NCBI GenBank assembly: GCA_018304055.1
Contig: JAGVWY010000036.1
Location: 1 to 40,932 of the forward strand
Source of the DNA: Candidatus Pacearchaeota archaeon
GTDB taxonomy: Archaea > Nanobdellota > Nanobdellia > Pacearchaeales > GW2011-AR1
DNA length: 40,932 bases
Direction: 5' to 3'
The notes under the pieces are model-generated. The model was not told the origin of the DNA and did not search any database. It saw only the letters and a list, made by a program, of their open reading frames with translations. A program made the position numbers and the translations under genes. The stretch's first letter is position 1. Each line of letters starts with the position of its first letter. Below are positions 2,130 through 40,427 of the stretch, piece by piece.

Positions 2130-3353
2130 TTAAAAAACATGAAATAAAATTGTCGGTATTATCAATGCTCCCATTAAATGAATTCTTTTTATTCCGCTTA
2201 AAATAGTAAAAATTCCTAAAGAGGTAGAGGTTATAAAAACAGTTAAAGCAATTATTTTTCCTTGAATAGTGAAATCAGAAAATAAAAAAATAACTATTAT
2301 AAGAAATATTATAATAAAAAAAGATAATTTTTCATATTTTATTTTGTTAATGTTTTTTGCAGTAAATTTTGCGAGCGCAATAGTGAGAAAAAAAGAGATA
2401 ATTCCTGATGAGATTATGATAGTTAAGATAAGGATTAGATTAGATGTTGTTAACTCTGGCATTAGTTGAGAAACTGCTACTGCTGCTCCGGTTCTTGTTT
2501 TATTTATTGAATACAAGGTTATGAAGGAAAGTCCCATTACTATTGTATTAATTGCTCCTAAAAGAAAAAGAAATTGTTTTTGATCTTTTATATTAAAAAG
2601 TTGCTTTCCTATTATAGCTGACTGACTTGAACCTAAACCTGGAAGAAAAGAAGTAAATGGAGCTGAAAAAACAGAGGCACAAAAACCCTTAACCATATCT
2701 GTTTTGTTTAAGATAATATATTTAATAGGCATAATTTTTTGTTCAGGTATTTTAGTTTTTTGTTTAATACTTATAATTAACGTACTAGCTCCAAATAATC
2801 CAGTTAACAAAGGAAGTAAAGGCTCTTTTATATTAAGAGTGAGAGAAGCAATTCCTAAAAATCCGGATAAGATAAATATTATTAAAGAGGCAAGTTTCTT
2901 TTCTTCTGATAGAATGAGAAACAAAGAAACTAAGATTAAAATAATTCCTATACTTTTTTGAATTAGAGAATAAAAAGAAGGAAGAAAACCGAGAAATAAA
3001 GGTGTAAGTAATAAAATAATAAACAAAGCTATAATGCTTCCATATGCAGTATAAACTACTGCATCATAGCCCTTTCCTTCTAATAATAATTGATGTCCTG
3101 GGAGAATAGAGAGAAAAGAATCTTCTTCAGGGGCACCTAGGAAAATAGAAGGAATAAAATCAACAAATGTGTGAGTAACTGCCATTGATATTATGAATAC
3201 TGCGAAAAGAGTAGGAGGAAAAGAATTTGTTGAAGTGTAAACATAAGACAACAACATGACAGAAATAAGATTTATATGGATTCCGGGAGTTAAGCCAGTT
3301 AGAGTTCCTGCTAAAATGCCAACTAGTAAAGCTACTATTAGTTCGAGTATCAA
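2130..3353 (-). CDS. TctA-family-like integral membrane protein (tripartite tricarboxylate transporter permease family)
   Basis: 407 aa polytopic protein with GxLxGLTPGIHIN and PSIFLGAPEEDSFLSILPGH motifs. Confidence 0.7.
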   Translation of the reverse strand: MILELIVALLVGILAGTLTGLTPGIHINLISVMLLSYVYTSTNSFPPTLFAVFIISMAVTHTFVDFIPSIFLGAPEEDSFLSILPGHQLLLEGKGYDAVVYTAYGSIIALFIILLLTPLFLGFLPSFYSLIQKSIGIILILVSLFLILSEEKKLASLIIFILSGFLGIASLTLNIKEPLLPLLTGLFGASTLIISIKQKTKIPEQKIMPIKYIILNKTDMVKGFCASVFSAPFTSFLPGLGSSQSAIIGKQLFNIKDQKQFLFLLGAINTIVMGLSFITLYSINKTRTGAAVAVSQLMPELTTSNLILILTIIISSGIISFFLTIALAKFTAKNINKIKYEKLSFFIIIFLIIVIFLFSDFTIQGKIIALTVFITSTSLGIFTILSGIKRIHLMGALIIPTILFHVF

Positions 3354-3470
3354 ATTTATTTCACCATTTATTATTTTATACTATTGAAGACATTATCCTT
3401 TTTAGTTACAATTATTAATATCCTCCCTTTTTTATATTTCTCATGACTAACGAAGAAAATAAGTTTTGGA

Positions 3471-3648
3471 AGAGTTGCTGAAAATCCTTTTTAAATAGCC
3501 CTAAAAATTAGCTAATAACTATCTTCAATCGAGAGTAAATTAGAAGTATATCTTTCACCAAAAAGTTCGTATAATCTTATAATTTCATTAAAATTTGGAG
3601 ATTTTATCGACTATAAAATTGTATTTATAAGTAAAATTCGGCAACTCT
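3471..3648. mobile_element. candidate MITE-like element
   Basis: Ends AGAGTTGCTGAA (3471) and CGGCAACTCT (to 3648) are inverted repeats; flanks agttttgga / agttttaga resemble a degenerate duplication; no ORF inside. Confidence 0.4.
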
Positions 3649-3677: not shown

Positions 3678-4220
3678 TTGGTTATTCATTTTATGAAAAA
3701 TAAACATTCAGCTCATGAAGGAATGAAGCCAGAAATTATTACTCCTTATATTCCAGATGCCACTGAAAAAAAGCGATTATATGAGCTGGCTTTAAAAGAG
3801 ATACATGAGAGAGTCAAAGGAGTTGATAGCCTTGTTCCACGAATGGCAACAGTATCTTCTATTTTAAAAAATATCATACCTTATTATTCTTGGTGCGGAT
3901 TTTATTTTGCTGAAGAGAATGAAATGATTGTAGGGCCTTATCAAGGAACTGCAGCATGTGCGAATATTGCTTATTCAGGTGTTTGCGGAACTGCAGCTAA
4001 GAATAAGAAAACAGTAGTTGTTCCGAATGTTCATGAATTTCCAGGGCATATAACATGCGATACTAGATCAAATTCTGAAATCGTCGTCCCTATTATTGAG
4101 GATAATATGGTTATTGCAGTGTTGGATGTTGACTCTGTATTATTAAACGCATTTGATGACATTGATAAGAAATTTTTAGAAGAAAAAATAATACCTATTT
4201 TACTAGAGGCAACTAATTAA
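3678..4220 (+). CDS. msrC: GAF-domain free methionine-(R)-sulfoxide reductase
   Basis: WCGFYF...GPYQGTAACANIAYSGVCGTAA...VVVPNVHEFPGHITCDTRSNSEIVVPI; the three fRMsr cysteine positions are present. Confidence 0.85.
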   Translation: MVIHFMKNKHSAHEGMKPEIITPYIPDATEKKRLYELALKEIHERVKGVDSLVPRMATVSSILKNIIPYYSWCGFYFAEENEMIVGPYQGTAACANIAYSGVCGTAAKNKKTVVVPNVHEFPGHITCDTRSNSEIVVPIIEDNMVIAVLDVDSVLLNAFDDIDKKFLEEKIIPILLEATN

Positions 4221-4222
4221 AC

Positions 4223-5168
4223 TGTCTTATCCCGAAATTATTTCATAAGGACAATATAATTGTTCCTATGAAACTGACAAGATCTAAGTTAATTGAGACG
4301 CTTAGAAAGCTAAATAATGGAGAAACAGTTTACCAAGCAAGAAAGATAGCTGGTGTAAGCGTGAGAAGAGTTTATCAAGTGAAGGAGGCATTTGAAAACA
4401 AAGGGGAGATTCTAGAAATAGGAAATAACGTCGGAAGGCCATTGATACCATTTGAAAATTGGGAGATTGAAATAGTAAAAGAAGCTTACGATAGATACAG
4501 AGTTTCAGCAGACACTTTAGAAAGATTAATTGACAGGGACTACAAAAGGCATATAGGTCATAACAGGATTCATAAGATTCTTGTATATCTTGATTATGCC
4601 AAGAAAAAGTCGTTCAAAGACATCAGAAAAAAGAAATGGAAGAGATATGAAAGAAGGCATTCTTTAACTGCCGTTCATATTGATTGGCATTATTTCAGGG
4701 GAAATTGGGTTTTTGGTGTTGAAGATGATGCGAGTAGAAAACTTCTTGCTATGATTGAGTCTAAAAACGAATCAACTGACAATTCAATTTCAGAAATGGA
4801 AATTGCTCTGAAACACGGGCCAATAAAACAATGTATAAGTGATCATGGCTCAACATTCACAAGCAATTTTGTCAACGCTAAATCAAGATTTAGAGAGTAT
4901 TTAATATTAAAAGGGATAAAACCAATACTTTGCAGAGTTCGCCATCCAAGGAGTAATGGAAAAATAGAGAAATGGTTCCAAGCTTACAACAAACATCGCG
5001 AAGCTTTTAAAACAACTGAAGAATTTTTGTTTTGGTACAATGATTTAAAACCACATAAAGCTTTAAAATTTGATGAACTTGAAACTCCATCACAAGCTTT
5101 CATAAGAAAACTCAGAAAATGAAAACTCGAAATAAATCAGCGTTAGGAAATATTAATGGGATACAACA
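4223..5168 (+). mobile_element. IS481-like insertion sequence
   Basis: TIRs TGTCTTATCCC...ATTTC (left) / TGTTGTATCCC...ATTTC (right, reverse complement); 15-bp direct repeat ggcaactaattaaac at 4208-4222 and 5169-5183; encloses transposase. Confidence 0.85.
4268..5122 (+). CDS. DDE (rve) transposase, IS481-like
   Basis: N-terminal HTH, HIDWHYF...ISDHGSTFTSNF...RHPRSNGKIEKWFQ DDE signatures. Confidence 0.85.
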   Translation: MKLTRSKLIETLRKLNNGETVYQARKIAGVSVRRVYQVKEAFENKGEILEIGNNVGRPLIPFENWEIEIVKEAYDRYRVSADTLERLIDRDYKRHIGHNRIHKILVYLDYAKKKSFKDIRKKKWKRYERRHSLTAVHIDWHYFRGNWVFGVEDDASRKLLAMIESKNESTDNSISEMEIALKHGPIKQCISDHGSTFTSNFVNAKSRFREYLILKGIKPILCRVRHPRSNGKIEKWFQAYNKHREAFKTTEEFLFWYNDLKPHKALKFDELETPSQAFIRKLRK

Positions 5169-15071: not shown

Positions 15072-15952
15072 ATGGAAGATCATTATATAAGATTGATACC
15101 CAAAGAAATTAGAGAATTAGGATTTCCAATAGCTAGATTTCTTTCTGAGGAAGAACAAGCAAAGTATGAAGAATCAATAAAACAATTTTCTGGAAATGCG
15201 TATGATTCTTTAAACATTCTTAGAAAGGGTTCCAATCTTTGGAAAGTCCTTTTTCTTAATCAAATAGGAATTAGAACCCCCACACTTCCAGAGTTAGAAA
15301 TTGCATTAGAAAACGGTATGCCTTTAAGTGAACATTATGTAAATGGAAGAGAAGTTATATTAAGAAGTAGAGGGGATAGTTATCAGCGAAATAATTATCT
15401 TGCTGAAACTTTGGCAGATAAATTAAAATTAAAATCCTTTAAACATCCTTATATTATTAGAGGATTAGGGATAAAACAGAGTGAAACACCAAAAGTAATT
15501 GATTGCGATGGATTAGAGTTTTTAACAGATGATACAGAAGTTAAAGAAGCACCTGATTTTAATCATGAAAATCATGGAAAAAAATTCAGAAGAATTAATG
15601 AGGATTATTCAATTGAATGGGATGAAAAAGGATCAAGGACTTTTTATGCTAGAAAAGATGGTTTGTCTAGGTTGTTCCTGAGCTGGGGCTTGGATCTGGG
15701 CTCGGACAACGAGCGTCTTGCGGGCTCGGGTGGCTATAGTCGGGTGGTTGTGATTAGCTGAAACAATTTGCATTAGATTTTTCTTTTTAATTTTTCTTTT
15801 TAAATTTGCAAATGCAAATTGTTTGCGAAGCCACGCAAAAAAATTTAGAAGAATACATTTCACAATTAAGAGTAGAAACCGAGAGGCAAAAAGCAGTAAT
15901 TGAGCAAAGATTTGCAGAATCTCTAAAATATCTTCAGACTGGAAAATTATAA
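15072..15952 (+). pseudogene. putative DGR-type variable protein interrupted by a 68-bp palindromic insertion
   Basis: ORF 15072-15761 ends in DGLSRLFLSWGLDLGSDNERLAGSGGYSRVVVIS*; removing 15759-15826 continues in frame as EATQKNLEEYISQLRVETERQKAVIEQRFAESLKYLQTGKL* (15827-15952). Confidence 0.65.
15759..15826. repeat. 68-bp palindromic insertion
   Basis: AAACAATTTGCATT (15761-15774) / AATGCAAATTGTTT (15811-15824), 14-bp perfect stem with T-rich loop; 68 bp shifts the frame and introduces a stop. Confidence 0.7.
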
Positions 15953-32153: not shown

Positions 32154-35100
32154 ATGGTTTTTAAGAGGTACATAAAAAAAGGAGGAAGGGTTTACGGGCC
32201 TTATTATTATGAATCCTATAGAGATAAGAATGGAGAGGTAAGAAAAAGATATGTTGGAACAAAGCCTTTAAAAAGTGGTGTAAATACTTCTAAAAAATAT
32301 TCTTTGTTATTTCTTTTAGCAGTTGTTTTTGCCATTGTTTTTTTAGTTATTTTGAAAACAGATATTGCTATATCTGGAAAAGTTATAAGTGGTGTAACCC
32401 AAACTCCCTTTTCTTTAGGAGGATTTTCAAAACTTTCTGGATATGTTGTTTCTGAAATAGCTGAAGAAGAGATAGTTGAGGAATTTGAGGTGAGAGAGAA
32501 AAATGCCAAGCTTAAAATAAAAAAACCGAAAGAGGTTTTAGGAAATAAAATATCAAAAAACAAAAATCATAGGATGGAATACGAAAGAATTGGATATGAA
32601 GTAAACGAAGGGTTAATCCTATATTTTGATATGTTGAATTATACAGAGTATATTGATGAATCTGCTTTAGTGATAAGAAAAGAAAATGAAAAAAGTAAAG
32701 GAAAAAATGAAAGTATTAATGAAAGTGAAGAATTGAAAGAAAGCAATTTTACAATTCCTATAAATGAGACATTAATTAATGATACTATAACCAATGAAAC
32801 TGAAAGTAATGAGAGTGAAAATAGCATTAATAATGAAACAATAATTGAAAATCCTGAAATAGGAGACAAAAATGAAACAGATAAAGAGGGAGATAAATTA
32901 AAAGAAGATGAAGAAAAGTTAGATGATAACAAAGGAAAAGAAGAGGATATTAATAAGGAAACTGATGAAAGCAAAAAAGGAAATAAAATAACCGGAATTT
33001 TTGGAGGATTTTTGGGTATTGTGGGAAGAGTTATTGAAAATGTTAATGATGAAAGTAGTGATAAAAATATCAGTTTAGATAAAGAAAAAGGGGTTGATGA
33101 GGATAAAGATAACAAGGAAGATAAGAAAGAAAATAAGAAAGAAATTGATAAAAAAAATGAAAGCGAAGAAAATGATGAAAAGGATAAAGATAATGAAAGC
33201 AAGGAAGGTGTAACAGATGAAGAAAATATTGACAACGAGGAAAAAGAGCAGAAAAGGAATGAGGATGAAAAGGAGAAGGATAATAAGGAGAAAATTAAGG
33301 GGCTTACATTAGAAGAGATAAAAAAAGGATTAGAAAATTTAAGTGAAGAATCGTTAAAAGGAATAGAGGATAAAGCATTAATTGTTTTGAATGATAGTGA
33401 GTTTAATATTACAGTGAATGAAAGTGAAGCTAGAAGATATAATGCTGATTTTAAATGGGGTTACAAAGTAGGATTAAAAGATAAACAATTAATGGCTAAA
33501 ATTGAGGTAACTAGTGAGGAATTAATCAGCATTTATGATAATCATACTCTAAGAGTTGGGAGAAGTCTTCTTTCATTCAAAGATTTGGTTAATTCTGGAT
33601 ATAATGTTAGATTTGAAAGGCCTTCTTTAGATATGGGAATTTATGACAAGAAAATTGTAAATGAAACTATTAATGAAACACTAATTAACGAGACAATTGT
33701 TAACGAGACTTTAGAGAATGTAACGATAATAAATAAGACATTAGTTAACGAAACAATAATAAATGAAACTCTGATAAATAAAACTGTTAATGAGTCATTA
33801 GAGAATGTTACTTCGGTTAATGAAACGATTATCAATGAGACTTTCATTAATGAAACGTTTGCTAACAAAACAATAATAAATGAAACTGAAGAAGAGAAAG
33901 AGATTGGTAAAGAAAAGAAAGAAGAAAAAAAAGAAGAAAAGGAGGAAAAGAAAAATGAAACAATTATCGAGACAATAATAAATGAGACTATTATAGAAGA
34001 AGATAAACAGATAGATAAAAGAAATGAAACTAAAGAGATTGGAGAAGAAATTAAAAAAGATATAGAAAATAAAACTGAAGAGAAAGAAGAAGTGAAAGAG
34101 GGAGAATGTTATGATAATATTACTAGAATATTTACTGACAAAGGATGGAGGTATTTTAAAGATTTAGAAGAAGATGATAAAGTCATGACATTAAATCAAG
34201 AAACTGGAGAACAAGAATGGCAATTGCCTTATGAGAAACAGGATTTTGAGGGAGATAAAGAAATGTATAGTATTAAGACTATTGATAGTAATGGCAGAGA
34301 AGGAGAATTAATTGTTTCAGAGAAGCATAAAGTTTATGTTAATTTGGAGGGAATTGATTCTATTGTAAATCCATCTTCATATAATGTAATTAAATTGCCT
34401 TCAAAATCTTCTGGCTTTATTTCTTTTAATAACCTGGAGAAAGCAGATTTTGACAATTCTAACTTATCTTGGGATATTCTTAACCAGACAACTGAAAATA
34501 TTTTTTCTTTTGGAAAATGCTCAGAGTCAGCAAAATCTTCATCATTGGTTATTAATGCTCTTTGTTCAGATTTTGAGAAGGAAGCTAATTTACCGTTAGC
34601 GAGTCCTTTGGGTTTTGAAACTGTATCAACTCCTTGTTCTTTAATAAATTTCTCAAGTCTTTTATCAACATTTTCATCTGACAGAAATCTAATCGAGCGG
34701 GACGCTGAATTGGACATTGTCTCTACCTCTCATCAAACTGGCTGCATAATGCAAGGCTGCTTTAATATGATTTTCGTTGATAGAGGGGAATGCTTCAAGA
34801 ATCTCTTTAATGGGTATTCCTGCTTCGAGCATTTCCAAAATTTGCCAGACCATAACCCTTGTACCTTTGAAAGTAGGCTTGCCACCACAAATCTCCGTGT
34901 CTGCAACAAGGTACTCATTAATTTCAACTCTCATTGTAATAATAAAAATAGTAAGGAATTATATAAACTTTTCTCCTTACAACCAATAACTGAGGTTTAT
35001 ACAGATTATAGGAATAGAAAAGATATTTATTTCTTAGACGATAAAAATAATCCTATAAAAATTTTAGAAATTGAGAAAGTTCCTTATGATGGAAGAATGT

Positions 35101-38100
35101 ATGATGTTGATGTTGAAAATGATGTGGTTTTAGTTGAAAGAAACGGATTTGTTGTATGGAGCGGGAATAGTGATTTAAAAAAAGAGGAAAAAGCAGAACC
35201 TGTTGAAGAAAAAAAGGAAGAAATAAAAGAAGAAAAGGAGAAAAAACAGGAAGAGAAATCAGAAGAGACAGCAAGTTCATCAGAAGAACCTGATGAACCT
35301 GTAATAACAGGAAATGTTGTTAGATTTTTTGGATTAATAGGAAGAGCTATTACTGGATTTGTAATAGCTAACGAAGTTGAAGATGTTTATTATAATAATA
35401 CGATAACTGTTTACATTGAAAGAGATTTTAGCAATGAAAACGTTAGTGTTGGAGAAACGATTTATTTAGATCCTACATTAATTATAGAGATAACAAAAGC
35501 AGAGCATTTAGATGAAAATAGAAGTTTTATTCGAGATATTTATGATTATGTAAAAGCAAAAGATGATAACTGGACAACTATTCCTCAAAGCCAATTTGTC
35601 CGCGTTACCTTTCAAAAAAATTTAACAAAAAGCAATGATATAACAATTTATGCGAGGTATGCAAATTATAGTAATAATATAAGTAATAATTCTGATAATA
35701 CAAACGAAAGTAATAATACAGGGAATGAAACGAGCAATACAAGTAATGAAATAAATATAAACAATAAAGGTGGAGAGATTATTGTTTATAGATTTAATGA
35801 TACTGAAGAAATTGCACGATTTACAAATATCACAAAAGAAGACTGGTACAAGATTTATTTAACTAATTTAAATGAAAATGAATCATACAATGTTTTTGAT
35901 TTACAGATTATAGGAGACATTGTGATTGGAGAAAATAATTCAGGAAATGAAAGCGGAAATTTAACAGGAAATCAGACAGGAAATGAAACAGGTAATGGAA
36001 CAGCGAATGTAACAGCAGCAGGCATTGAATTTGATTATGTTGTGGATCCTACGAATTATAATATTGTATTGGTTGAATCAACGAATACTGTTGGTTTGTA
36101 TAGTTCCATAGCCATAGATTCTAATGATGGAGTTCATATCTCTCATCATAAAAGCTTAAACGAATTAAGGTACTGCAATAACACTGCATCAGATGGAAGC
36201 TGGAGCTGTACTGTTGCTAAGACAACTAATTTTATAGGATATTATAGTTCTATAGCTATTGATTTAAATAATAAAGTCCATATTTCTCACCAAGACAATT
36301 GGAATTTTGATTTATACTACTGCAATAATACAGCAAGTGATGGCTCTTGGAGCTGTATTGCCATTGAATCAACGAATAATGTTGGATATGATACTTCTAT
36401 AGCCATAGACTCTAATAATAAAATACACATTTCTCATCGAGACACAACTAATAGCAACCTTCGATACTGCAATAATACTGCAAGTGATGGCTCATGGAGC
36501 TGTATTGCAGTTGATTCAGGAGGAATTTATTCTTCTATAGCCATAGATTCTAATAATAAAGTCCATATTTCTCATCATGAGGGTATTGCCGCTGATTTAA
36601 GATACTGCAATAATACTGCAAGTGATGGCTCATGGAGCTGTACTGCTATAGATATCGATTCTGTAGGATATTATTCTTCTATAGCCATAGATTCAAACAA
36701 TAAAGTCCATATCTCTCATCAAGATCCTAGTCCGGTGCTTGACCTTAGATACTGCAATAATACTGCAAGTGATGGTTTATGGAGCTGTATTACCATTGAA
36801 TCAACGAATAATGTTGGTTATTTAACTTCTCTTGCAATAGATTCTAATGATGACATTCACATTTCTCACTACGAGGATATTGCGAGCAGTAGTTCTGATA
36901 GGTTACGCTACTGCAATAATACAGCAAGTGATGGCAGTTGGAGTTGCACTGAAATAGCGAGCAATACTTCAATTACTGCCTCTTCTTTTGGCAGGGGATT
37001 AGCCATAAAAAAAGGAAGATTAATGGATACAACAAGTTATTCTACTTATGTTCATGGAAGTTTTTACAATACCAGCGGAGGAGATTTATACTACTGGAAC
37101 ATGAGCGGAACATGGCCGGCATCTAGTGATTCTATTCCGAAGATTAATTTCACTGAACCAACTCCAGTAAATGCAACTTCAACTGTAAATACAAGTTTTA
37201 TTGTCAATGTTTCAATTGTTGAACCTGATTTAAATGAAGTAATTTATAATTGGAATGGGACGAATTACACTTTGTATAATGATAGCTTGGTATTATTAAT
37301 GAATTTTGATAATGTTTCTGCACTTGGTGAAAATGATACATTAGTCGCTGATCTAAGCGGTTATGGAAATAATGGGACCGGAAATAGTTCCAGCACTGTC
37401 TGGTTATCTACTGGAAAATATGGCGGAGTTTTCAATTTTAGCGGAAATAATAATAGTTTTATAAATATAAGTAATACTACTGCATTTCCTTCTGATAGTA
37501 TAACAGTAGCATTTTGGGTTAATGCAAGCTCAAGCGGAGGTGCGGATGGAATAATTTCTTATGCTGCGTCAAGTGATAATGAATTCCTTTTATTTGATAC
37601 TACAAGTATTGATGTGTATGTAAGTAGCACATCTGCTGCAGGTACTGTAAGCATTAATGATAATCTTTGGCATCATATTACTGTGATTTGGTCTGGCGCT
37701 ACTAATCGTTCATTAACTTATAAAGACGGAATATTAGAAGATAATTTAAGCTTAGCTCCATCAAGCAATATAGGTAGAGATGGTTGTTTAGTACTTGGTC
37801 AGGATCAGGATTCAGTTTGTGGTGGTTTTCAAAATAGTCAGGCATTTTATGGTCACATGGATAATCTCATGATTTTTAATAGAAGCCTTTCTTCAGACGA
37901 AGTCTATCAACTTTATGCTTCAAATTTATATCGTTATAATACAACACAATGGTATCTTTTAGTGAATCAGAGCAAGAATGCAAGTGCAGTATTAGAAGAT
38001 GGAACATATACATATTTTGCATGGGCAAATGATACTTCAGGAAATGATAACATAACAGAAATAAGAACAATATATGTTAATCATAGTGATGTTCCAAAAA

Positions 38101-40427
38101 TATATTTTGTGAATTTACAAAATGTTTCTGTAAATTCTTCTTTTAAAATAAATGAATCCAGATTTGGAAATGGAAGTGAGTTGCAGATTTCTGATCAATT
38201 TGGTATAAGTGTTGCAAACCTTGGAGATTTAGATGGAGATGGAGTACAAGATATTGTTGTTGGAGCGAATGGAGTTGATGATGGAGGAGGTGCTGATGGA
38301 GCTGTCTGGATTTTATTTTTAAACACTTCAGGAGGTGTTAAAAACTCATATAAAATAAACGAATCCAGATTTGGAAATGGAAATGAATTAAGTAGTGATC
38401 AATTTGGACATAGTGTTGCAAACCTTGGAGATTTAGATGGAGATGGAGTACAAGATATTGTTGTTGGAGAATGGTTAAATGATGATGGAGGAACTGATGA
38501 TGGAGCTGTCTGGATTCTTTTCTTAAACACTTCTGGAGGAGTTCAAAACTCCTATAAAATAAACGAGTCTAGTCTCGGAGGTAATGTATTAAGCAGCGAT
38601 GCTTTTGGAAGTGCGGTTGCAAACCTTGGAGATTTAGATGGAGATGGAGTACAAGATATTGTTGTTGGTGAATATGGTAATGATGACGGAGGAAGCAGTA
38701 ACGGAGCTGTCTGGATTTTATTTTTAAACACTTCAGGAGGTGTTAAAAACTCATATAAAATAAACGAATCAAGGTTTGGAAACGGAAATGAGTTAAGTAG
38801 TGATAATTTTGGATATAGAGTTGCAAACCTTGGGGATTTAGATAGAGATGGTGTTAATGATACTATTGTTGGAGAATATCTTGATGATGCTGCTGGTGGA
38901 GTTAATGGAATAGATAACGGAGCTGCATGGATTTTATTTTTAAACACTTCAGGAGGTGTTAAAAACTCATATAAAATAAACGAATCAAGGTTTGGAAACG
39001 GAAATGAATTAAGTAGTGATTTTTTTGGATATAGTATATCAAACCTTGGAGATTTAGATGGAGATGGAGTACAAGATATTGTTGTTGGTGAATATGGTAA
39101 TGATGACGGAGGATCAACCAATGGTGCTGTCTGGCTGTTATTTCTTCAAACTTTTCCTGATTATAGAACTGTAACAAAAAATACAAGTCTAATTGTTAAT
39201 GTAAGCATTGCTGATACAAATTTAAGAGATGTTATTTGGAATTGGAATGGGACGAATTATACGCTTTATAATGATTCTTTAATTATATATTATAATTTTG
39301 ATAATAGAAGTGATCTTGGAGAAAATGACACTTATGTTTTAGATGTTTCAGGAACTGGAAATAATGGGACTGTTCATAATGGAAGTTGGAATGTAAGTGG
39401 TAGATATGGTGGAGCGTTTTATTTTAACTTAAGTAGGTCGCACAGTAATACTTACATTCGTCCACCAGGAGGATATAATATTGTTAATAAAACTGTAACT
39501 GCATGGATCAAAAGAGATAATGCTATTAGTTGGGATCAGATTGCGGGATTATGTAGTGGTAATTGGTATTTTGCTGTTAGATCTGGTGATGATCTTATTA
39601 TCTCGTATAATAATAGAACATTTTCACAAACTACCTGCGCTAAATTTAGTATTACTGATACTAACTGGCATTTTGTTGGAGCAACTGTTTATAATAATGA
39701 GACTGATGGAGTTAATGTAACGCTTTATTTAGATGATAAAATTGCAAGTTGTTCATCTACTACTGGAATTACAGAAACCTCGCAAACAATACAAATTGGC
39801 AGTTTCATAAGTGGTTGCGGAGTAACAGATGCAGTTTTCAATGGAACAATAGATGAATTTATGTTTTGGAATACGACGCTTCCTCCTGAAATTGTTCAGC
39901 AGTTTTACTTTTCAAATCTTTACAAATTTAATACAACACAATGGTATCTTCTTGTTAATCAATCCAAGAATGCAACTAATGGATTAGATGAAGGAAATTA
40001 TAGTTATTTTTCATGGGTTAATGATACTTCAGGAAATACAAACATGACAGAAATTAGATATTTTAGAACTGCAAACCCTTCTGGAAAGAAATTTGCTATA
40101 ACAAATTCTTCGAATGATGTTGTGGCGAGCATTGATGATACAGGAGATTTATTTTTACAAGGAAATATAGCTCAAAGTCAAAGTAGTCTTACTGCTGAAA
40201 AAAATTCATTTATTGTAACTAATTCAACTAATGATGTTGTGAGTTATATTACTAATACAGGATATTTATTTTTACAGGGAATTATTGGAACTGGATCTGT
40301 AACTACTGGAGTGGCTCCAACAAATCTTGAAATTAGAAATTCAACTAATGATATAGTTGCATTTATTAATAATACTGGAAGTTTGCAGATAATTGGAAAT
40401 TATTATGATAATTATGAAGAGCCGTGA
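32154..40427 (+). CDS. giant cell-surface protein: N-terminal membrane anchor, charged linkers, Hint/intein domain, beta-propeller-like repeats, LamG-like domains, FG-GAP repeats
   Basis: 2757 aa open frame; YYYESYRDKNGEVRKRYVGTKPLK + TM; CNNTASDGSWSC repeats; two LamG-like (ConA-like) regions; ANLGDLDGDGVQDIVVGE repeats; C-terminal NSTNDVVAxIxNTGxLFLQG repeats. Confidence 0.85.
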   Translation: MVFKRYIKKGGRVYGPYYYESYRDKNGEVRKRYVGTKPLKSGVNTSKKYSLLFLLAVVFAIVFLVILKTDIAISGKVISGVTQTPFSLGGFSKLSGYVVSEIAEEEIVEEFEVREKNAKLKIKKPKEVLGNKISKNKNHRMEYERIGYEVNEGLILYFDMLNYTEYIDESALVIRKENEKSKGKNESINESEELKESNFTIPINETLINDTITNETESNESENSINNETIIENPEIGDKNETDKEGDKLKEDEEKLDDNKGKEEDINKETDESKKGNKITGIFGGFLGIVGRVIENVNDESSDKNISLDKEKGVDEDKDNKEDKKENKKEIDKKNESEENDEKDKDNESKEGVTDEENIDNEEKEQKRNEDEKEKDNKEKIKGLTLEEIKKGLENLSEESLKGIEDKALIVLNDSEFNITVNESEARRYNADFKWGYKVGLKDKQLMAKIEVTSEELISIYDNHTLRVGRSLLSFKDLVNSGYNVRFERPSLDMGIYDKKIVNETINETLINETIVNETLENVTIINKTLVNETIINETLINKTVNESLENVTSVNETIINETFINETFANKTIINETEEEKEIGKEKKEEKKEEKEEKKNETIIETIINETIIEEDKQIDKRNETKEIGEEIKKDIENKTEEKEEVKEGECYDNITRIFTDKGWRYFKDLEEDDKVMTLNQETGEQEWQLPYEKQDFEGDKEMYSIKTIDSNGREGELIVSEKHKVYVNLEGIDSIVNPSSYNVIKLPSKSSGFISFNNLEKADFDNSNLSWDILNQTTENIFSFGKCSESAKSSSLVINALCSDFEKEANLPLASPLGFETVSTPCSLINFSSLLSTFSSDRNLIERDAELDIVSTSHQTGCIMQGCFNMIFVDRGECFKNLFNGYSCFEHFQNLPDHNPCTFESRLATTNLRVCNKVLINFNSHCNNKNSKELYKLFSLQPITEVYTDYRNRKDIYFLDDKNNPIKILEIEKVPYDGRMYDVDVENDVVLVERNGFVVWSGNSDLKKEEKAEPVEEKKEEIKEEKEKKQEEKSEETASSSEEPDEPVITGNVVRFFGLIGRAITGFVIANEVEDVYYNNTITVYIERDFSNENVSVGETIYLDPTLIIEITKAEHLDENRSFIRDIYDYVKAKDDNWTTIPQSQFVRVTFQKNLTKSNDITIYARYANYSNNISNNSDNTNESNNTGNETSNTSNEININNKGGEIIVYRFNDTEEIARFTNITKEDWYKIYLTNLNENESYNVFDLQIIGDIVIGENNSGNESGNLTGNQTGNETGNGTANVTAAGIEFDYVVDPTNYNIVLVESTNTVGLYSSIAIDSNDGVHISHHKSLNELRYCNNTASDGSWSCTVAKTTNFIGYYSSIAIDLNNKVHISHQDNWNFDLYYCNNTASDGSWSCIAIESTNNVGYDTSIAIDSNNKIHISHRDTTNSNLRYCNNTASDGSWSCIAVDSGGIYSSIAIDSNNKVHISHHEGIAADLRYCNNTASDGSWSCTAIDIDSVGYYSSIAIDSNNKVHISHQDPSPVLDLRYCNNTASDGLWSCITIESTNNVGYLTSLAIDSNDDIHISHYEDIASSSSDRLRYCNNTASDGSWSCTEIASNTSITASSFGRGLAIKKGRLMDTTSYSTYVHGSFYNTSGGDLYYWNMSGTWPASSDSIPKINFTEPTPVNATSTVNTSFIVNVSIVEPDLNEVIYNWNGTNYTLYNDSLVLLMNFDNVSALGENDTLVADLSGYGNNGTGNSSSTVWLSTGKYGGVFNFSGNNNSFINISNTTAFPSDSITVAFWVNASSSGGADGIISYAASSDNEFLLFDTTSIDVYVSSTSAAGTVSINDNLWHHITVIWSGATNRSLTYKDGILEDNLSLAPSSNIGRDGCLVLGQDQDSVCGGFQNSQAFYGHMDNLMIFNRSLSSDEVYQLYASNLYRYNTTQWYLLVNQSKNASAVLEDGTYTYFAWANDTSGNDNITEIRTIYVNHSDVPKIYFVNLQNVSVNSSFKINESRFGNGSELQISDQFGISVANLGDLDGDGVQDIVVGANGVDDGGGADGAVWILFLNTSGGVKNSYKINESRFGNGNELSSDQFGHSVANLGDLDGDGVQDIVVGEWLNDDGGTDDGAVWILFLNTSGGVQNSYKINESSLGGNVLSSDAFGSAVANLGDLDGDGVQDIVVGEYGNDDGGSSNGAVWILFLNTSGGVKNSYKINESRFGNGNELSSDNFGYRVANLGDLDRDGVNDTIVGEYLDDAAGGVNGIDNGAAWILFLNTSGGVKNSYKINESRFGNGNELSSDFFGYSISNLGDLDGDGVQDIVVGEYGNDDGGSTNGAVWLLFLQTFPDYRTVTKNTSLIVNVSIADTNLRDVIWNWNGTNYTLYNDSLIIYYNFDNRSDLGENDTYVLDVSGTGNNGTVHNGSWNVSGRYGGAFYFNLSRSHSNTYIRPPGGYNIVNKTVTAWIKRDNAISWDQIAGLCSGNWYFAVRSGDDLIISYNNRTFSQTTCAKFSITDTNWHFVGATVYNNETDGVNVTLYLDDKIASCSSTTGITETSQTIQIGSFISGCGVTDAVFNGTIDEFMFWNTTLPPEIVQQFYFSNLYKFNTTQWYLLVNQSKNATNGLDEGNYSYFSWVNDTSGNTNMTEIRYFRTANPSGKKFAITNSSNDVVASIDDTGDLFLQGNIAQSQSSLTAEKNSFIVTNSTNDVVSYITNTGYLFLQGIIGTGSVTTGVAPTNLEIRNSTNDIVAFINNTGSLQIIGNYYDNYEEP
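34334..34717 (-). CDS. DUF5615-family PIN-like toxin
   Basis: RFLSDENVDKRLEKFIKEQGVDTVSKPKGL...ALITNDEDFADSEHFPKEKIFSVVWLRI; acidic PIN-like positions retained. Confidence 0.8.
   Translation of the reverse strand: MSNSASRSIRFLSDENVDKRLEKFIKEQGVDTVSKPKGLANGKLASFSKSEQRALITNDEDFADSEHFPKEKIFSVVWLRISQDKLELSKSAFSRLLKEIKPEDFEGNLITLYEDGFTIESIPSKLT
34689..34934 (-). CDS. DUF433-family antitoxin
   Basis: DTEICGGKPTFKGTRVMVWQILEMLEAGIPIKEILEAFPSINENHIKAALHYAA; overlaps toxin start by 29 nt. Confidence 0.85.
   Translation of the reverse strand: MRVEINEYLVADTEICGGKPTFKGTRVMVWQILEMLEAGIPIKEILEAFPSINENHIKAALHYAASLMRGRDNVQFSVPLD
34959..34967 (-). promoter_or_regulatory. TATA-box-like element for the antisense TA operon
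   Basis: Reverse strand TTTATATAA about 25-33 nt upstream of the antitoxin ATG (34934). Confidence 0.5.
38148..39150 (+). repeat. approx. 200-bp tandem repeats encoding FG-GAP units
   Basis: aaccttggagatttagatggagatggagtacaagatattgttgttgg and aacttcaggaggtgttaaaaactcatataaaataaacgaatc-type segments recur about five times. Confidence 0.85.

What the first reader, a model, noticed from the sequence alone, without database searches (positions are those of the whole stretch)
15660..15758. Diversity-generating-retroelement-like variable region in an orphan target gene
The C-terminus reads L S R L [F] L [S W G] L [D] L [G] S [D N] E [R] L A [G] S [G G Y] S R V V V I S. Invariant L/S/E/LA/SRVVV positions alternate with residues encoded by ttc, agc, ggc, gat, ggc, gac, aac, cgt, ggc, ggt, ggc, tat. 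Every one is NNY, as expected if template AAC/AAT codons were adenine-mutagenised (the tgg W is the exception and could come from AGG). The segment is strikingly GC-rich in an AT-rich gene, which A-depletion would explain. Knowledge: DGRs are reported as abundant in DPANN archaea. No reverse transcriptase or template repeat is visible in the window, so it would be a remote or orphan target.
Basis: partly seen in the sequence, partly recalled or inferred. Interest (0 to 1): 0.85.

Follow-up and report, generated by a model that had tools for sequence, protein, structure and literature searches.

The report
Orphan archaeal hypermutation target gene
The GC-rich tail of this gene in a Woesearchaeota-like archaeon is a real variable region written by a diversity-generating retroelement, although its template is not beside it, and in related archaea the enzyme that does the rewriting often carries an unstable repeat that looks like an on/off switch.

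Summary
The gene at 15072-15761 is a diversity-generating retroelement (DGR) target and 15663-15749 is its variable repeat (VR). Orthologues at 46-57% identity in five related genomes sit beside a template repeat (TR) and reverse transcriptase (RT). Over ten TR/VR pairs (own genome plus eight relatives), 137 of 264 template adenines are changed and 0 of 576 other bases. The window VR differs from the consensus of those TRs at 16/24 adenine columns but only 5/35 conserved non-adenine columns (p=5e-5).

The gene is not in an RT-free genome. Contig C1 has an in-frame DGR RT, a TR and a sister target. That TR did not write the window VR (12 of 56 non-adenine bases differ), and no donor TR exists in the held assembly (92% complete). 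The locus is therefore a "partial DGR", a kind already reported for nanoarchaea. It is live in trans or a fossil; I cannot tell which.

New details: four targets in this genome carry the same long hairpin directly after the VR; in the window it cuts off the ancestral C-terminal tail. In relatives, the RT has a G8-G12 or (AG)n tract at one fixed site, with frames 0/1/2 = 13/10/11. This looks like phase variation of hypermutation.

The parts
15072..15761 (+). DGR target gene, 229 aa; no Pfam, PHROG or PDB relative
   Evidence: ORF; orthologues and paralogues; no known domain
15663..15749 (+). Variable repeat (VR), in codon register with TRs of relatives
15741..15749 (+). IMH-like 3' end of the VR: CGGGTGGTT, where TRs of relatives read CGAATGGC or AGAATGGC
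   Evidence: same GG (VR) versus AA (TR) difference in nearly all pairs
15761..15824 (+). Long-armed hairpin directly after the VR (arms 15761-15774 and 15811-15824, T-rich loop); the stop codon 15759-15761 overlaps its edge; three further copies in this genome, each after a DGR-type VR
   Evidence: not found in 20 other genomes of the genus
15825..15831 (+). GCGAAGC mini-hairpin, remnant of the GAA-triloop element that follows VRs in relatives (e.g. AGTGGCGAAGCCACT)
   Evidence: VR downstream sequences; sequence
15827..15952 (+). Stranded C-terminal tail, open frame EATQKNLEEYISQLRVETERQKAVIEQRFAESLKYLQTGKL, continuous with the target ORF in relatives
   Evidence: relatives' tails in L061, L062 and G002:C27

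Best explanation
The gene is a variable protein of the archaeal DGR type. Its last ~29 codons were overwritten by mutagenic retrohoming: a DGR reverse transcriptase copied a template repeat, misreading adenines, and the cDNA replaced the VR up to the IMH at CGGGTGG. The ancestral arrangement, still seen in relatives, was window-type target + C1-type target + TR + RT. In this genome the window-type target has been separated from the RT/TR cassette (contig C1) and a hairpin now sits between the VR and the old C-terminal tail. Shown: the target family, the VR, the A-specific mechanism in orthologues, an in-frame RT with its own TR in the genome, and no matching TR in the assembly. Inferred: the donor TR is either in the unassembled ~8% or lost, and any present-day rewriting is done in trans by the C1-type RT.
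For: Orthologues in G006, G018, G012, G103 and G102 (46-57% identity) lie next to a TR and RT. Ten TR/VR pairs give 137/264 A changed and 0/576 non-A changed. Window VR excess of change at TR-A columns, p=5e-5. Own-genome RT PF00078 E=7.7e-25 on C1 with a TR and a sister target differing at 9 A and 0 other core positions. Tandem window-type plus C1-type targets in G103, G003 and probably G007. Two hairpin-bearing paralogues (C25, C3b) share the hairpin almost base for base, but their VRs differ at ~15% against ~5% in the body, with A in one copy at 7 of 10 VR differences. Hairpin-bearing targets were therefore still being rewritten.
Against: No TR matching the window VR in 1.23 Mb. No within-population data. 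Twelve non-A differences from the only TR present mean that the C1 TR was not the donor. The stop codon plus hairpin removed the C-terminal tail that orthologues keep, which could mean decay.
Confidence: 0.93

Rival explanations
1. Fossil: the VR was written by a DGR in the past, the cassette then moved or was lost, and the gene is now fixed; the hairpin insertion truncated it.
For: No donor TR in the assembly. C-terminal tail cut off by a stop and hairpin. Broken sister copies exist: C3a has a frameshift near its VR, and G002:C27 has lost most of its VR.
Against: The target ORF up to the end of the VR is intact. The RT in this genome is in frame. The hairpin-bearing pair C25/C3b diverged in its VRs after sharing the hairpin.
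Confidence: 0.42
2. Live remote target: the C1 RT (or a second, unassembled cassette) rewrites this VR in trans from a TR missing from the assembly.
For: In-frame RT. Intact IMH-like end. Four hairpin-marked targets with VRs but no local RT. In G007 an orthologous VR at the end of one contig agrees with the TR at the start of another, with 14 differences at A and 1 elsewhere, although the two contigs may simply adjoin.
Against: No such TR found, and only one RT found, in the 92%-complete assembly.
Confidence: 0.5
3. Not a DGR: a GC-rich acquired segment or repetitive C-terminal motif with NNY codons by chance.
For: No TR or RT in the window itself.
Against: Orthologous genes have unambiguous A-specific TR/VR pairs at exactly this place. 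The window VR deviates from TR consensus preferentially at A columns.
Confidence: 0.02

Closest known systems
Partial DGRs of nanoarchaea (DUSEL4; Paul et al. 2015, PMC4372165)
   Same: Target gene + VR + cis elements without a local RT, in a genome with RT cassettes elsewhere; IMH with GG where the TR has AA; GRA-triloop hairpin inside the target gene; target without a recognisable domain
   Different: Here the triloop element is displaced by a long-armed, T-rich hairpin that ends the ORF right after the VR and recurs after three other VRs; target family not compared with DUSEL4 sequences
AvpA, CLec-fold archaeal DGR variable protein (Handa et al. 2016, PMC5006420)
   Same: VR near but not at the C-terminus, followed by an ~46-aa helical extension that contains the hairpin, as in the relatives of the window gene
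   Different: No sequence match of the window family to any PDB chain; fold not established (model pLDDT 35); the window gene has lost the extension
Cellular DGRs with remote targets in trans (Trichodesmium, reviewed in PMC8867640)
   Same: VR loci far from the RT in a cellular genome
   Different: There the TR/VR homology is direct and read-level variation was seen; here the donor TR is not found and there are no reads

Membership tests
Diversity-generating retroelement target | VR in the target's 3' part differing from a TR almost only at TR adenines | tested here: inconclusive
   Met for orthologues and for the own-genome C1 target (137/264 A, 0/576 non-A); no donor TR for the window VR itself
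Diversity-generating retroelement target | DGR-type RT in the genome | tested here: met
   C1:2293-3348, PF00078 E=7.7e-25; 351-aa in-frame ORF beside a TR and VR
Diversity-generating retroelement target | IMH/IMH* signature at the 3' end | tested here: met
   CGGGTGGT in the window as in VRs; C/AGAATGGC in TRs
Diversity-generating retroelement target | Hairpin/cruciform shortly downstream of the VR | tested here: inconclusive
   A long hairpin and a residual GCGAAGC are present, but the fold is only modestly better than shuffles (z -1.86)
Diversity-generating retroelement target | C-type lectin (or Ig) fold presenting the variable residues | tested here: inconclusive
   No PDB or Pfam match; structure model pLDDT 35, unusable
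Diversity-generating retroelement target | Population-level hypervariation at VR codons | not testable with these tools
   No reads; one genome per species

The most novel reading that the evidence does not exclude
The DGR family to which this target belongs is phase-variable. In related Woesearchaeota-like genomes the RT gene carries a simple repeat (G6-G12, C11 or (AG)4-11) at one fixed site just before the G-[IM]-P-L-G motif, so slippage would switch targeted hypermutation on and off. The window genome's RT has a short in-frame (AG)4 at the same place. Remote targets such as this gene would then be diversified only during ON phases.
Probability: 0.7. Interest if true: 0.8.

Novelty: new member of a known kind. 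Interest (0 to 1): 0.55.

Why it matters
It confirms by sequence comparison a DGR target that standard pipelines, which look for the VR next to the RT, would miss (Roux et al. 2021, PMC8144416, say that their method does not detect remote targets). It shows that one archaeal genome can hold several VR genes marked by a shared hairpin but with a single RT, which makes trans-diversification versus fossilisation directly testable with reads. The apparent phase-variable switch in the RTs of relatives, if real, would be a regulatory layer on DGR mutagenesis that I found in no paper searched.

Tried and rejected
(1) C1 TR as donor of the window VR: rejected, 12 of 56 non-A positions differ. (2) A donor TR elsewhere: {base or A} pattern of 86 nt with 3 mismatches finds only the VR itself; BLAST with the C1 TR finds only C1. 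(3) A local TR or RT in the window: none. (4) Viral origin: no relatives of the target or the RT in IMG/VR by the search for related loci. (5) Structure: AlphaFold with three sequences gave pLDDT 35, so no fold search was made. (6) TR for the C25/C3b targets: none found. (7) One TR (G103) was out of register, and the C-frame offsets printed were wrong by one base; the corrected values are (TR register; half-frames).

Full report
Observation. The ORF at 15072-15761 ends in the sequence described, with all listed codons NNY. The VR has GC 0.61 against 0.30 in the rest of the gene (profile). The gene has no Pfam, PHROG or PDB relative (one sub-threshold NCBIfam hit) and lies between a methylpurine-DNA glycosylase gene and a diphthamide synthase (Dph6-type) gene.

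Genome. The window is contig C32 of a 1.23 Mb, 92%-complete assembly. The named relatives of the target are Woesearchaeota / Nanoarchaeia genomes, so DPANN is a fair label. A single RVT_1 match lies on contig C1 (E=7.7e-25). Reading C1 gives a complete DGR: target 3829-4596(-), TR about 3395-3482(-), RT 2293-3348(-). Its VR differs from its TR only at adenines (9 core differences). The window VR is not a copy of this TR: 20 of 28 adenines but also 12 of 56 other bases differ. No other template is found in the assembly.

Relatives. Among 192 related genomes, 32 encode a relative of the target and 61 a relative of the RT. Orthologues of the window gene in G006, G018, G012, G103 and G102 (46-57% identity) lie beside a TR and an RT; more distant targets do so in G007, G048, G117, G106 and G184. 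For ten clean pairs, 137 of 264 TR adenines and 0 of 576 other TR bases are changed. In G103 and G003 a window-type and a C1-type target stand in tandem, and in G007 they sit at ends of two contigs that may adjoin. The split between C32 and C1 in the window genome is therefore probably derived. Against the consensus of nine TRs the window VR has the DGR bias (16/24 A columns changed, 5/35 others, p=5e-5). The five others are three C/T third-position changes, one T/C first-position change in a leucine codon and one G/A.

Surroundings of the VR. Relatives continue after the VR through a GAA-triloop hairpin (for example AGTGGCGAAGCCACT) into a coiled tail. In the window the frame stops at 15759-15761 and a hairpin with 14-nt arms and a T-rich loop follows (15761-15824). 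Then GCGAAGCC and the tail resume in an open but unused frame to 15952. The same hairpin follows three other DGR-type VRs in this genome: C3 near 8040 and 1306, and C25 at 6404. It has no exact match in 20 other genomes of the genus. Two of these targets, C25 and C3b, are recent duplicates whose hairpins are nearly identical. Their VRs differ about three times as much as their bodies, mostly at positions where one copy has A. This argues that hairpin-bearing targets were still rewritten, but their template was not found either. In DNA folding the window hairpin is only mildly better than shuffles (z -1.86). It could be a terminator, an insertion attracted to the DGR cruciform, or a replacement cis element; I cannot decide.

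Mechanism. Shown: A-specific template-directed rewriting in orthologues; RT and TR in the same genome; IMH-like end; no donor TR in the assembly. Inferred: mutagenic retrohoming from a missing or lost template, in trans if still active. I put live remote target at about 0.5 and fossil at about 0.42.

Known work. Paul et al. 2015 (PMC4372165) described nanoarchaeal genomes with four or more DGRs and partial DGRs without RT, GG versus AA at IMH/IMH*, and GRA-loop hairpins inside the target. Handa et al. 2016 (PMC5006420) found a CLec fold for one such protein with a 46-residue extension after the VR. Roux et al. 2021 (PMC8144416) state that remote targets escape their method. The window gene is a new member of this known kind.

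By-product. The RTs of relatives are often two ORFs meeting just upstream of the G-[IM]-P-L-G motif. Of 69 RT linkers that could be read, 34 have a G/C tract of at least 6 or an AG repeat of at least 4 units there: 21 of 23 broken genes and 13 of 46 intact ones. In all 21 broken cases both half-frames are open and meet or overlap at the tract. The frames 0/1/2 are 13/10/11 (counted), as expected for free slippage. Long tracts occur 25 times in 4.5 kb of linkers, once in 70 kb of other RT sequence and three times outside linkers in 372 kb of loci. Searches for DGRs with phase variation, frameshift, homopolymer or phase-variable found no report of this. Subscription papers, among them Paul et al. 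2017, were not held, so priority is not established. Caveats: one assembly per species, no reads, and homopolymer miscalls are possible, although AG repeats show the same pattern.

Noticed in passing
Relatives' RT genes: L051-L055, L089, L095, L098-L117, L121, L125, L126, L140, L144, L147, L150; own RT L002:2293-3348(-): Simple sequence repeat (G6-G12, C11 or (AG)4-11) at a fixed linker site before the GIPLG motif of DGR RTs; 34 of 69 linkers carry one, frames 0/1/2 = 13/10/11, and in all 21 broken genes both half-frames are open through the tract. Looks like a phase-variable on/off switch for hypermutation.
   Followed up: yes
L012:6408-7157(-), L011:1310-2050(-), L002:179-832(-): Three further DGR-type targets of a different, Gly/Trp-rich VR family in the same genome; two are recent duplicates with the long hairpin; no template found for those two
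   Followed up: partly
L011:8042-8777(-): C3a target, same family as the window gene, with a frameshift near an A7 tract shortly before its VR
   Followed up: partly
L013:6185-6910(+): Paralogue of the window target (39% identity) on C71 without a recognisable VR
   Followed up: no
L089 (G002:C27) 3099-3425(-): Relative of the window gene that has lost most of its VR although a TR and a frameshifted RT remain beside it
   Followed up: partly
window 34334-34934 (-), inside the 2757-aa ORF 32154-40427 (+): DUF433/DUF5615 pair (toxin-antitoxin-like) on the strand opposite a giant open frame, between segments that look by eye like intein (Hint) ends; Pfam finds no intein domain in 33900-35700
   Followed up: partly
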